Source: Micromonospora sp. NBC_01740
GTDB taxonomy: Bacteria > Actinomycetota > Actinomycetes > Mycobacteriales > Micromonosporaceae
Direction: 5' to 3'
DNA: 64,000 bases
NCBI RefSeq assembly: GCF_035920365.1
Contig: NZ_CP109150.1
Coordinates: 2,294,001 to 2,358,000, forward strand
Part shown: piece by piece, positions 7,817 through 34,451 of the stretch
How positions within the stretch are numbered: position 1 is the stretch's first letter
Layout of the letters: every line of letters starts with the position of its first letter
Notes under the pieces: model-generated
What the model saw: the letters and a program-made list of their open reading frames with translations, nothing else
Databases searched by the model: none
Told to the model about the DNA's origin: nothing
Position numbers and translations under genes: made by a program

Positions 7817-8518
7817 ATGGAGATCGACTGGGAGCGGCTGCGGGCCGCCGCCACCGAGGTGATGCGGCACGCGTACGTGCCGTACTCGAAGTTCCCGGTC
7901 GGGGCGGCCGCGCTTGTCGACGACGGCCGGGTGGTGGTCGGCTGCAACGTGGAGAACGCCGCGTACGGCGTGGTGCTCTGCGCCGAGTGCGGCGTGGTCT
8001 CCTCGCTGCACGCCACCGGCGGCGGCCGGATCGTGGCCCTGTCCTGCGTCGACGCCACCGGCGAGCCGCTGATGCCGTGCGGCCGGTGCCGCCAGCTGCT
8101 CTGGGAGCAGGGCGGCCCGGAGTGCCTCATCGAGGCGAGGGGCGGGCCGCTGCGGATGGCCGAGCTGCTGCCGCACGCCTTCGACGTGACCGACCTGGAG
8201 GCCGTGACGGGGGAAGCCCCGGTGCCCGTGGTGCCGGAGCGGCTGGCCGCCTGGCGCGGGCGCGGCACGGTCTTCGTGCACCCCGACCTCTCCGCCGGCC
8301 AGCAGGTCTGGACCGGCTACTGGGAGCGGTCCGCGGGCGACGACGACGGCGCCGAGACCGGCGTGCTGGAGGAGGGCCCGAGCTGGGACGAGCCGGCTGA
8401 GGCGATCGCCTGGGGCCTCGCCCGTACGCCCCGGGTGGTGGTTGTGGACGCCTCGGGGGCGATCTTCTGGGCCGGCGAGGGTGAGCCGCCGATGGAGATC
8501 CCGGTCCGCTGGGGTTGA
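7817..8518 (+). CDS. cdd: cytidine deaminase with C-terminal extension
   Basis: The enzyme deaminates (deoxy)cytidine to (deoxy)uridine. The zinc site is complete: CAEC with Cys55 and proton shuttle Glu57, and PCGRC with Cys88 and Cys91. The substrate-binding NVENAAYG motif is present. Typical tetrameric cytidine deaminases stop near residue 130; this one has about 100 more residues, including VFVHPDLSAGQQVWTGYW and a WDEPAEAIAWG segment that look like a separate small domain. The ATG at 7817 has GGGGGAG upstream. Its place in the transporter operon implies salvage of imported pyrimidine nucleosides. Confidence 0.93.
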   Translation: MEIDWERLRAAATEVMRHAYVPYSKFPVGAAALVDDGRVVVGCNVENAAYGVVLCAECGVVSSLHATGGGRIVALSCVDATGEPLMPCGRCRQLLWEQGGPECLIEARGGPLRMAELLPHAFDVTDLEAVTGEAPVPVVPERLAAWRGRGTVFVHPDLSAGQQVWTGYWERSAGDDDGAETGVLEEGPSWDEPAEAIAWGLARTPRVVVVDASGAIFWAGEGEPPMEIPVRWG

Positions 8519-8524
8519 GCTTTG

Positions 8525-8598
8525 GGGCTCGGGCCGACCGTGCCCGGCTCCGGGCGGTCAGGCTTGATCCCTCCGCCGGGCACGGTCGGCCTGAGCCC
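8525..8598 (+). repeat. 74-nt hairpin with conserved loop, copy A
   Basis: A 24-nt arm (8525-8548) pairs with 8575-8598 with one mismatch, around a 26-nt loop (8549-8574) containing GGGCGGTCAGGCTTGATCCC. A second element at 33540-33613 has the same 24-26-24 geometry, a completely different stem, and a loop matching at 25 of 26 positions. Both sit just 3' of a gene and read the same way relative to it. Copy A begins 7 bases after the cdd stop. It could terminate transcription or act as an RNA element; there is no U-run. Confidence 0.8.
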
Positions 8599-8654: not shown

Positions 8655-9935
8655 ATGAGTGCTTTCACGGCGGTTGACGTCATCCGGGTCAAGCGGGACG
8701 GGGGTGTGCTCTCCGACGCGCAGATCGACTGGGTGGTGGACGCGTACACCCGGGGGGTGGTCGCCGACGAGCAGATGTCGGCGCTGGCCATGGCGATCCT
8801 GCTGCGCGGCATGACCGGGCCGGAGATCGCCCGGTGGACCGCCGCGATGATCGCCAGCGGGGAGCGGCTCGACCTCTCCGCCGTCGACCGGCCGACCGTC
8901 GACAAGCACTCCACCGGCGGCGTCGGCGACAAGATCACCCTGCCGCTCACCCCGCTGGTCGCGGCCTGCGGTGCCGCCGTGCCGCAGCTCAGCGGCCGGG
9001 GCCTCGGGCACACCGGCGGCACGCTGGACAAGCTGGAGTCGATCCCGGGCTGGCGGGCGGCGCTGGGCAACGACGAGTTCACCGCCCAGCTCCGGGACGT
9101 CGGCGCGGCGATCTGCGCGGCCGGCGCGGGGCTCGCGCCCGCCGACCGCAAGCTGTACGCGCTGCGCGACGTGACCGGGACCGTCGAGGCCATCCCGCTG
9201 ATCGCCAGCTCGATCATGAGCAAGAAGATCGCCGAGGGCACCGGCGCGCTGGTGCTCGACGTGAAGGTCGGCTCCGGCGCGTTTATGAAGTCCGTCGAGC
9301 AGGCCCGCGAGCTGGCCCGGACGATGGTGGAGCTGGGTGGCGCGCACGGCGTACGGACCGTCGCCCTGCTCACCGAGATGTCCACCCCGCTGGGCCTGGC
9401 CATCGGCAACGCCGTCGAGGTGACCGAGTCCGTCGAGGTGCTCGCCGGGGGCGGTCCCGCCGACGTGGTCGAGCTGACCCTGGCGCTGGCCCGCGAGATG
9501 CTCGACGCGGCCGGGCTGCCGGACGTCGACCCGGCGGCGGCCCTGCGTGACGGCCGGGCGATGGACTCCTGGCGGGCGATGATCCGCGCCCAGGGCGGCG
9601 ACCCGGACGCCCCGATGCCGACCGCGAACGAGGTCGAGATGGTCCGCGCGGACACGGACGGCTTCGTCGCGGCGATCGACGCGTACGACATGGGGGTGGC
9701 GGCCTGGCGGCTCGGCGCCGGGCGGGCCCGCAAGGAGGACCCGGTCAGCGTGCCGGCGGGGGTCGTGCTGCATCGGCGTCCGGGCGACCCGGTGCGGGCG
9801 GGCGACGTCCTCTTCGAACTGCGGGCGGAGGACGCCGCCCGGATCCCGGCGGCCCGGGAGGACGCCGCGCGGGCGGTACGGATCGCGCCGACCGCACCCG
9901 CCGCGACGCCGCTGGTCATCGAGCGGATCGGCTGA
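8655..9935 (+). CDS. deoA: thymidine phosphorylase
   Basis: This 426-residue enzyme cleaves thymidine with phosphate to thymine and 2-deoxyribose-1-phosphate. Family marks include VIRVKRDGG near the start, the glycosyltransferase-family signature SGRGLGHTGGTLDK, the phosphate-loop DKHSTGGVGDK, and KVGSGAFMK. Length matches the family. AGGAAGA precedes the ATG. It follows cdd across the conserved-loop hairpin and continues the pathway: deaminated nucleosides are phosphorolysed here, and deoC and the aldehyde dehydrogenases at 33.6-36.8 kb can process the deoxyribose arm. Confidence 0.95.
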   Translation: MSAFTAVDVIRVKRDGGVLSDAQIDWVVDAYTRGVVADEQMSALAMAILLRGMTGPEIARWTAAMIASGERLDLSAVDRPTVDKHSTGGVGDKITLPLTPLVAACGAAVPQLSGRGLGHTGGTLDKLESIPGWRAALGNDEFTAQLRDVGAAICAAGAGLAPADRKLYALRDVTGTVEAIPLIASSIMSKKIAEGTGALVLDVKVGSGAFMKSVEQARELARTMVELGGAHGVRTVALLTEMSTPLGLAIGNAVEVTESVEVLAGGGPADVVELTLALAREMLDAAGLPDVDPAAALRDGRAMDSWRAMIRAQGGDPDAPMPTANEVEMVRADTDGFVAAIDAYDMGVAAWRLGAGRARKEDPVSVPAGVVLHRRPGDPVRAGDVLFELRAEDAARIPAAREDAARAVRIAPTAPAATPLVIERIG

Positions 9936-32945: not shown

Positions 32946-33404
32946 CTACCTGTCCGCTGCCCTGTCGGCCCGGGGCGGTTGGCCGTCGACCGACGGCGCC
33001 TCGACCCGGTCGGTCAGCGCGTCCCCACCGTGCCCGGCCCCTTCGGCCTCGGCCCCGAGGGCGGCGCGCAGCACCTCGGCCTCGGTGCCGGTCACCGAGC
33101 GGGCGAAGCGCACCAGCGCGGCGTCCCGGCTGCCGCCGAGGTCGAGGGCGTCGAGCATGAGCTGGGCGATGTACGCCTCGCGGCTGGCGGCGGCCCGGTA
33201 TCGCCAGGCCCGCCCCTCCCGCTCGCGCTGCACCATGTCCTTGCCGGCGAGCCGGTCGAGCACGGTCATCACCGTCGTGTACGCCAGCTCGCGGCCGTCC
33301 AGCGCGTCGGCGACCTCGCGCACGGTGATCCCGTCCGACGTGCCCGGGACCGAGTCCCACAAGACGTCCATCACCGCACGTTCGAGATCACCAAGCCGAG
33401 TCAC
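32946..33404 (-). CDS. BlaI/MecI/CopY family repressor
   Basis: This 152-residue winged-helix repressor shows MTRLGDLERAVMDVLWDS, TVREVADALDGRELAYTTVMTVLDRL and the wing REREGRAWRYRA. TAGGAT at 33411-33416 (minus strand) ends six bases before the GTG, so the mRNA is probably leaderless. CTAC-N5-GTAGTAG overlaps that -10, indicating autorepression. The C-terminal ~30 residues are a longer, charged tail than usual. The same repeat type lies in front of cydA. Confidence 0.92.
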   Translation of the reverse strand: MTRLGDLERAVMDVLWDSVPGTSDGITVREVADALDGRELAYTTVMTVLDRLAGKDMVQREREGRAWRYRAAASREAYIAQLMLDALDLGGSRDAALVRFARSVTGTEAEVLRAALGAEAEGAGHGGDALTDRVEAPSVDGQPPRADRAADR

Positions 33405-33539: not shown

Positions 33540-33613
33540 GGTTTTCCGGGGAGCCCCGCCCGCGCAGGGATCAAGCCTGACCGCCCGGAGCGGGCGGGGC
33601 TCCCCGGAAAACC
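33540..33613 (-). repeat. 74-nt hairpin with conserved loop, copy B
   Basis: Two perfectly complementary 24-nt arms (33540-33563 and 33590-33613) enclose a 26-nt loop (33564-33589). Read on the minus strand, the loop holds GGGCGGTCAGGCTTGATCCC, the same as copy A at 8525-8598, while the stem shares no sequence with copy A. It lies 13 bases beyond the stop of the minus-strand dehydrogenase gene, in the same relation to its upstream gene as copy A. Confidence 0.85.
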
Positions 33614-33626
33614 CAGGACAGAACAG

Positions 33627-34451
33627 TCACACCCCCTTGGGGTGCCAGACCGTCTTCGTCTCCAGCAGCGTGGTCATCCGGGTGATGCCGGGGTCGGCGG
33701 ACCAGTCGTGGTCGGCCGGGGCCGGCCGGAGCACCCGTTTGAGGTTCTGCGCCGCCTTGACCTCCAGTTCCGTCGCCAGCTCGGCGTCGGCCACCCCGGT
33801 CAGGTCGATGGCGTTGACGTCCATGTGGGCGGCCAGCGCCGGCACGGTCTCGGCGATCCGGCCGGTGAGCAGGTTCACCACCCCGCCGGGCAGGTCGGAG
33901 GTGGCGAGCACCTCCGCCAGGGTCACGGCCGCCAGGGGCTGCGTCGGCGAGGTCGCCACCACCACCGTGTTGCCGGTGACGATCGCCGGGGCGATCACGC
34001 TGACCAGGCCGAGCAGCGCCGGGGACTCCGGGGCCACCACGGCCACGACGCCGGTCGGCTCGGGCGCCGACAGGTTGAAGTACGGCCCGGCGACCGGGTT
34101 GGCGCCGCCGTAGACCTGGGGGAGCTTGTCGGACCAGCCGGCGTACCAGACCCAGCGGTCCACGGCCGCGTCGACCTCGTCGCCGGGCACGCCGAGGGCG
34201 ACGAACTGCTCGCGCCGGCCCTCCAGCATCTCGGCGACCCGGTAGAGGATCTGACCCCGGTTGTACGCCGTCGCCCCGGCCCAGCCCTTCACGGCGGCGC
34301 GGGCGGCGACCACGGCGTCCCGCGCGTCCTTGCGGGAGGCGAGGGAAACGTTGGCGTCCTGCACGAGATACGACCGTCCCGACTCGCTGCGCGGGAACTT
34401 CCCGCCGATGAAGAGCTTGTACGTCTTGCGTACCGCGACCCGCTCAGACAT
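33627..34451 (-). CDS. aldehyde dehydrogenase-like protein without catalytic cysteine
   Basis: At 274 residues this is about half the usual ALDH length. It keeps the NAD-binding half (LFIGGKFPRSESGRSY, YNRGQILYRVAEML, TGVVAVVAPESPALLGL, LPGGVVNLLTG) but ends before the catalytic Cys, and its NPE-type substrate region is absent. It overlaps the end of a full ALDH gene by 8 bases. The pair, one active and one catalytically dead, recalls the two-domain ALDH16 family split into two genes. It may be a structural partner; a decayed duplicate is less likely given intact coding character. Confidence 0.8.
   Translation of the reverse strand: MSERVAVRKTYKLFIGGKFPRSESGRSYLVQDANVSLASRKDARDAVVAARAAVKGWAGATAYNRGQILYRVAEMLEGRREQFVALGVPGDEVDAAVDRWVWYAGWSDKLPQVYGGANPVAGPYFNLSAPEPTGVVAVVAPESPALLGLVSVIAPAIVTGNTVVVATSPTQPLAAVTLAEVLATSDLPGGVVNLLTGRIAETVPALAAHMDVNAIDLTGVADAELATELEVKAAQNLKRVLRPAPADHDWSADPGITRMTTLLETKTVWHPKGV

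What the first reader, a model, noticed from the sequence alone, without database searches (positions are those of the whole stretch)
8525..8598. Hairpin copy A: variable 24-bp stem, conserved 26-nt loop
Copy A (8525-8598) and copy B (33540-33613) have the same 24-26-24 geometry. Their stems share no sequence, yet their loops match at 25 of 26 positions (core GGGCGGTCAGGCTTGATCCC). Both begin within 15 bases of an upstream stop codon and have the same orientation to that gene. A conserved loop on unrelated but fully paired stems suggests selection on structure, for example an RNA-protein or RNA-RNA recognition loop at mRNA 3' ends, a specialised terminator, or a mobile palindromic element that captures its arms.
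Basis: seen in the sequence. Interest (0 to 1): 0.85.

Follow-up and report, generated by a model that had tools for sequence, protein, structure and literature searches.

The report
Hairpins with one constant crown
Scattered through these soil bacteria, usually just after the end of a gene, is a small DNA hairpin whose tip is nearly unchanged between distant relatives while its 23-step stem takes almost any sequence that still pairs, which suggests that an unknown cell factor reads the tip and needs only a stem of fixed length beneath it.

Summary
The loop core GGGCGGTCAGGCTTGATCCC occurs 14 times in this genome (reversed control 0) and in 55 of 61 genus genomes; it recurs on unrelated stems in two other families of the order and in Trueperella bonasi (another order). 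In 331 copies chosen on the inner 10 pairs, pairs 11-22 are 94% Watson-Crick and pairing falls to background at pair 24. Stem covariation is overwhelming (0 of 500 shuffles). The loop can itself fold as a bulged hairpin; one copy shows a compensatory swap there, but at least as many variants break its pairs as keep them. In 201 of 225 scored copies the core is sense to the upstream gene, median 20 nt after its stop codon; some Actinoplanes-type copies follow 5S rRNA. Sites are inherited with compensatory stem changes; two copies lie in frame inside a methyltransferase gene. No U-tract, Rfam family, REP foot, Y1-transposase link, or phage or plasmid match was found. Best reading: a gene-3'-end RNA element whose crown is read by an unknown factor and which also spreads as a small palindrome. 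Function is inferred. Unexplained: inner-stem mismatches are mostly A.C, rarely G.T.

The parts
8525..8547 (+). copy A, 5' arm of the variable 23-bp stem
   Evidence: pairs with 8576-8598
8548..8575 (+). copy A, constant 28-nt crown CTCCGGGCGGTCAGGCTTGATCCCTCCG (outer C-G pair, internal loop, predicted apical hairpin with bulged C and GGCT tetraloop)
8576..8598 (+). copy A, 3' arm
33591..33613 (-). copy B, 5' arm (reads 33613 to 33591)
33563..33590 (-). copy B, constant crown CTCCGGGCGGTCAGGCTTGATCCCTGCG
33540..33562 (-). copy B, 3' arm
7817..8518 (+). gene upstream of A: cytidine/deoxycytidylate deaminase domain; element starts 6 nt after its stop
8655..9935 (+). gene downstream of A: pyrimidine nucleoside phosphorylase domains
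33627..34451 (-). gene upstream of B: aldehyde dehydrogenase domain (274 aa); element starts 13 nt after its stop
32946..33404 (-). gene downstream of B: penicillinase-repressor domain (longest ORF; my gene call starts at 33374, and that shorter frame was scanned)

Best explanation
The two hairpins belong to a dispersed family of about 74-nt elements of actinobacteria, working mainly in the RNA of the gene they follow. SHOWN: a 23-bp stem of nearly free sequence but fixed length carries an almost invariant crown; it is mostly sense to, and close behind, the stop codon or 5S rRNA of the upstream gene; sites are inherited vertically with compensatory stem changes, and some copies lie inside genes. 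PARTLY SHOWN: the crown is itself a small hairpin (C-bulge, G-U pairs, GGCU tetraloop). INFERRED: an unknown trans-acting factor (RNA-binding protein, RNA-polymerase factor or RNA) reads the crown in the nascent or finished transcript, and the stem serves as a rigid spacer and block, so that the element defines, terminates or protects the RNA 3' end. It has also multiplied as a small palindromic unit. Perfect pairing is probably helped by DNA-level arm-to-arm correction.
For: Loop invariance with a free stem; 298 of 343 unique copies with a stem have the canonical 20-mer. Covariation in 34 aligned copies: 95.0% of cells paired against 70.8% shuffled, 258 double-change cells against 81, 0 of 500 shuffles. 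Fixed length: 331 copies chosen on the inner 10 pairs; WC 298 of 331 at pair 22, 248 at 23, 118 at 24 (106 expected). Apical helix: G62-C69 in place of C62-G69 in one Trueperella copy; G60.U71 also seen as A-U (3 copies) and G-C (2). Orientation: core strand equals the upstream gene's strand in 166 of 184, in 201 of 225 without the A and B ortholog sets, and in 56 of 64 in other genera. Behind 5S rRNA: 2 of 16 loci given to (L057, L066) and 6 of 20 given to (L060, L362, L364, L366, L381, L383). Vertical descent: A in 19 of 30 and B in 10 of 30 orthologous loci; loop differences 0.0038 (A) and 0.027 (B) per site against stem changes 0.247 and 0.181 per pair. Spread: two copies in frame inside a PF02636 gene; nine relatives aligned lack most of those segments.
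Against: No transcript data were seen. No U-tract in either direction. A lies between two same-strand genes that may form one operon, where a strong terminator would be costly. Two copies lie inside an open coding sequence in opposite orientations. Stem mismatches in pairs 1-18 are A.C far more than G.T on the sense strand (101 against 19, 315 copies), the reverse of what selection on sense-RNA pairing predicts. At locus A one-sided stem differences (606) outnumber double ones (364) in pairwise comparison (at B 46 against 141). At least as many crown variants break an apical pair as keep one. In the own genome only 6 of 10 scored copies are sense to the upstream gene. No recognition factor was found.
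Confidence: 0.45

Rival explanations
1. A strand-specific single-stranded-DNA mobile palindrome: a transposase or recombinase recognises the crown of the extruded DNA hairpin and copies the unit; placement after genes reflects where insertions are tolerated.
For: Stem subfamilies shared between unrelated sites, with similarity ending at the hairpin borders (L004 and L009 95.9% over 73 bp); copies inside genes; patchy distribution across families and in Trueperella; G.T is not favoured among stem mismatches.
Against: No target-site duplication (flank similarity 8.74 of 12 within copies against 8.57 across copies); no REP foot; Y1 transposase domain in 18 of 61 genus genomes and absent from several with many copies; old orthologous sites; the tight sense orientation to genes is not expected.
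Confidence: 0.22
2. The structured molecule is the opposite strand: an antisense RNA hairpin, for example stopping antisense transcription from entering the gene.
For: On that strand the mismatches of pairs 1-18 become G.U 101 against A.C 19, in Micromonospora-like (68:15) and other genera (33:4), and whatever the replication direction (15:4 and 11:3).
Against: The sense strand folds more stably on average (-64.8 against -63.2 kcal/mol over 315 copies) and so does its crown alone in the G-type loop (-9.3 against -5.3), though not in the C-type loop (-7.4 against -8.6); the apical G.U pairs exist only on the sense strand; in the outermost pairs 19-23 the mismatch bias is reversed (distinct contexts A.C 20, G.T 41); for co-directional sites no gene lies on that strand; its tail is C/A-rich with almost no U.
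Confidence: 0.13
3. Ordinary bidirectional hairpin terminators or 3' stabilisers whose loop is conserved only by common descent, the arms kept perfect by template-switch correction.
For: 3' position; few G.T intermediates; template switching is a published possible way to perfect inverted repeats (passage in PMC6649704).
Against: The loop is far more conserved than the stem at the same orthologous site and the same between families; fixed stem length; convergent genes can carry two copies, one per gene in its own sense (L309, L314, L316).
Confidence: 0.15

Closest known systems
REP sequences / REPtrons (TnpA-REP, RAYT)
   Same: Short palindromic repeats in many copies; strand-specific reading of loop or stem irregularities is published (passages of PMC8266576). 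Their frequent place at gene 3' ends is recalled.
   Different: No GTAG foot, 23-bp stem with free sequence, 20-nt constant crown, no link with Y1 transposase genes.
Intrinsic transcription terminators of actinobacteria
   Same: Very stable GC-rich hairpin just behind stop codons and 5S rRNA.
   Different: No U-tract; constant, oriented crown; fixed stem length.
RNA operators read by proteins at a bulged hairpin (phage coat-protein type; recalled)
   Same: Bulged base, short helix and tetraloop, nearly invariant.
   Different: Chromosomal, multi-copy, on a long variable stem; no binder known.
Integron attC sites (recalled)
   Same: Structure conserved while most arm sequence varies.
   Different: In attC the constant boxes lie in the arms and the variable part is the loop; here it is the opposite.
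Coding palindromes of nematomorph mitochondria (passages of PMC6649704)
   Same: Perfect inverted repeats inside translated genes, with template switching as a possible cause.
   Different: No constant loop or dispersed family appears in the passages seen.

Membership tests
REP / REPtron | GTAG tetranucleotide at the hairpin foot | tested here: not met
   A is 2-7% at the eight positions before the stem, which are G/T-rich (by base frequency on the core strand; the other strand was not tested for the word)
REP / REPtron | associated TnpA-REP (Y1 transposase) gene | tested here: not met
   18 of 61 genomes have PF01797 (own genome one partial match); element-rich G055, G042, G045 (17, 13, 16 cores) have none
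REP / REPtron | multi-copy palindrome at gene 3' ends | tested here: met
Intrinsic terminator | GC-rich hairpin behind a gene | tested here: met
Intrinsic terminator | U-tract directly after the hairpin | tested here: not met
   T 9-39% at +1 to +15 against 20% background; on the other strand T near the stem is 2-7%
Intrinsic terminator | transcript 3' end at the hairpin | not testable with these tools
   no RNA data held
Known Rfam family | score above a curated threshold | tested here: not met
   0 in the window; only sub-threshold matches at A and B, mostly microRNA precursors
MITE / IS-derived element | target-site duplication | tested here: not met
   flank similarity 8.74 of 12 within copies against 8.57 across copies (297 copies)
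Phage- or plasmid-borne element | copies in phage or plasmid records | tested here: not met
   viral contigs 0 exact; no match at E 0.1 with a 30-nt query

The most novel reading that the evidence does not exclude
A new class of genetic element: a factor-read RNA (or DNA) crown of about 20 nt mounted on a sequence-free ruler stem of 23 bp, placed in sense behind genes and rRNA operons in at least two orders of actinobacteria, both maintained for gene 3'-end function and spread as a palindromic unit, its arms rewritten by a strand-biased DNA correction that removes G.T but leaves A.C.
Probability: 0.35. Interest if true: 0.88.

Novelty: new variant of a known kind. Interest (0 to 1): 0.75.

Why it matters
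As I recall them, known bacterial palindromic repeats keep their stems or feet; here the stem sequence is free and the tip is fixed from Micromonospora to Trueperella. That predicts one conserved binding factor, findable by a single pull-down, and may reveal how these bacteria end or protect transcripts without U-tract terminators. The family also gives hundreds of natural replicates for asking whether paired arms are kept by RNA selection or by DNA template switching.

Tried and rejected
RAYT/Y1 transposase partner: tested, no association. Replication-strand hairpin repair as the cause of the A.C excess: tested in 109 copies from complete genomes with the origin placed by DnaA; the bias is the same for both directions, so rejected. 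Target-site duplications: none. A clean empty site was not found: at A, two relatives without the element look like deletions between short direct repeats with arm remnants (L101, L081; read by eye); the methyltransferase inserts lie in length-variable linkers. Rfam: nothing above threshold. Phages, plasmids and viral contigs: none. Phylum sample: 2 of 396 genomes with the core at up to 1 mismatch, both own genus; Trueperella shows that such a sample misses carriers. Literature: searches returned 0 papers for their terms, one of which was a 15-letter piece of the core; some searches listed 3, 2 and 4 papers, none on this element by title. No absence wider than those searches is claimed.

A printed mismatch table double-counted some classes; the recounts are used. 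Control hairpins (69 other 3' hairpins, G.T 26 against A.C 21) are few. Gene calls come from my own GC-frame script, not a standard annotator.

Full report
OBSERVATION. Copies A and B are present as described, with the same 24-26-24 geometry and loops differing at one base. Their cores are the only two in the 64-kb window at up to 3 mismatches, with 0.00 expected. An unguided search of the window for long stems with an 18-40 nt spacer found five, two of them A and B.

FAMILY. The own genome (7.32 Mb, one contig) holds 14 cores at up to 3 mismatches, 13 of them exact; the reversed control gives 0. One of the 14 (L005, minus strand) keeps the outer part of its stem but not the inner part. In the genus 55 of 61 genomes have the core at up to 2 mismatches, from 0 to 22 copies. 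In the family 93 of 200 genomes and 23 of 44 genera match a slightly shifted pattern at up to 2 mismatches. That is an upper bound: 11 of the 30 loci fetched there lack a stem of at least 16 of 20 pairs (one is a contig end, some are chance hits in genes), and the reversed control also rang once in a few genomes. A covariance model matched 49 of 298 genomes of the order, in 7 of 76 genera, four of them in two other families. Of the 18 hits in those families, 16 show the core (at most one change in its 12-nt centre), mostly on unrelated long stems; the other two, L181 and L182, have the core on decayed stems. In a phylum sample 2 of 396 genomes matched, both of the own genus. That genome has five exact cores and two of a variant; four of the five and one of the variants fold as the hairpin, on stems with more A and T, while L450 does so poorly.

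ARCHITECTURE. In 63 of 74 copies kept for having at least 17 of 24 pairs, each of 23 stem pairs is standard in 52-62 of 63 (56 at the outermost), with up to four WC types per position (the 11 dropped are listed there and include variant loops and chance sites). On 34 aligned copies 95.0% of cells pair against 70.8% after shuffling, with 258 double-change cells against 81.1; 0 of 500 shuffles reach either. To choose less on the answer, 331 of 392 unique contexts were taken on the inner 10 pairs: pairs 11-22 are WC in 296-323 of 331 (94% on average), pair 23 in 248, pair 24 in 118 (106 expected), further out at background. Stem length is therefore close to 23, sequence nearly free; copies of one other family extend further (L166, L168). 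The crown is predicted to fold as C-G, internal loop, C-G/G.U/G-C/G-C, bulged C, G-C/G.U/U-A/C-G/A-U and a GGCU tetraloop. Of 343 unique copies with a stem, 298 have the canonical 20-mer. Variants that keep or improve apical pairs: G62-C69 for C62-G69 (1), A60-U71 with U61.G70 (2), A60-U71 alone (1), G60-C71 (2), U61.G70 (3), A55 with U74 (4). Variants that break one: C59/A72 with A55 (9, several of them behind rRNA operons), A57 (2), C56 (2), U56 (1, with G60-C71), C68 (3), C63 (1), C70 (1), A73 (1), G74 (2), C57 (1). The apical helix is thus plausible and has one true double swap, but sequence seems to matter at least as much as pairing.

PLACE. Of 232 copies, 184 had a called gene on both sides (19 lay inside an ORF call); in 166 the upstream gene is on the core's strand, and in 123 its stop lies at most 40 nt before the stem. 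Leaving out the heavily sampled A and B orthologs: 201 of 225 scored of 305 copies, median 20 nt; other genera only: 56 of 64 scored of 84; own genome: 6 of 10 scored of 12. By the four own-genome exceptions are L010-L013, in long divergent intergenic regions. In Actinoplanes-type genomes some copies follow the 5S gene. Convergent genes can carry one copy each. In 109 copies from complete genomes, 52, 30, 17 and 10 fall in successive quarters from origin to terminus.

HISTORY. A is present in 19 of 30 orthologous loci and B in 10 of 30 (in each set one locus has a flank under 200 nt). Loop differences are 0.0038 and 0.027 per site, while 0.247 and 0.181 of stem pairs differ; over all pairwise comparisons there are 364 double WC-to-WC and 606 one-sided changes at A, 141 and 46 at B (comparisons are not independent). 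Sites without the element can keep arm remnants (L101, L081, by eye). Two copies lie in frame, in opposite orientation, inside one gene of the own genome (L005) and three relatives (L017, L214, L236); the protein of the three relatives was scanned and is PF02636. Nine family members aligned lack most of those segments.

STRAND PUZZLE. In pairs 1-18 of 315 copies the sense strand shows A.C 101 and G.T 19 (Micromonospora-like 68:15, other genera 33:4). By distinct contexts in the 262 copies it is 68:17, while in pairs 19-23 it turns round (20:41), mostly G.T at the last pair. Sixty-nine other 3' hairpins show no such bias (G.T 26, A.C 21). The bias does not depend on replication direction. Either the antisense hairpin is the selected molecule, or DNA hairpins of the sense strand are corrected in a way that removes G.T. 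The apical G.U pairs and the mean folding energy argue for the sense strand. I leave this open.

MECHANISM. Shown: family, stem architecture, place, descent. Partly shown: apical hairpin. Inferred: a trans-acting reader of the crown, 3'-end function, spread as a unit, DNA-level correction. A U-tract terminator is not supported; a REP is not supported. The two papers cited were seen as passages only.

Noticed in passing
L016, L147, L205, L218, L221: Another hairpin class with the opposite habit: conserved arms (GATCGACTCGGGTTTCTTGATGTCGGGG type) and variable spacers, scattered in Micromonospora.
   Followed up: no
L040, L158, L217, L012: A further recurring palindrome with arms like GTCGATCATGGAGTTGTGGTG.
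   Followed up: no
L006, L010, L011, L012, L013: Four copies sit 0.8-1 kb upstream of closely similar paralogous genes (no Pfam match for the partial L012 protein); L013 lies beside a C39-like peptidase gene. In four of them (L006, L010-L012) a second conserved hairpin or its start (GGAGATCTTGGCAAGAAAC type) follows; no Rfam match.
   Followed up: partly
L057, L362: ZMP/ZTP riboswitch match near the element behind a 5S gene in Actinoplanes-type genomes.
   Followed up: no
element flanks: The 20 nt before the stem are G/T-rich and poor in A; GGTTGC is enriched upstream (75 of 297 against 4 in a control stretch) and GTGGTC downstream (62 against 22).
   Followed up: partly
109 copies in complete genomes: Copies are concentrated near the replication origin (52, 30, 17, 10 by quarter).
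   Followed up: no
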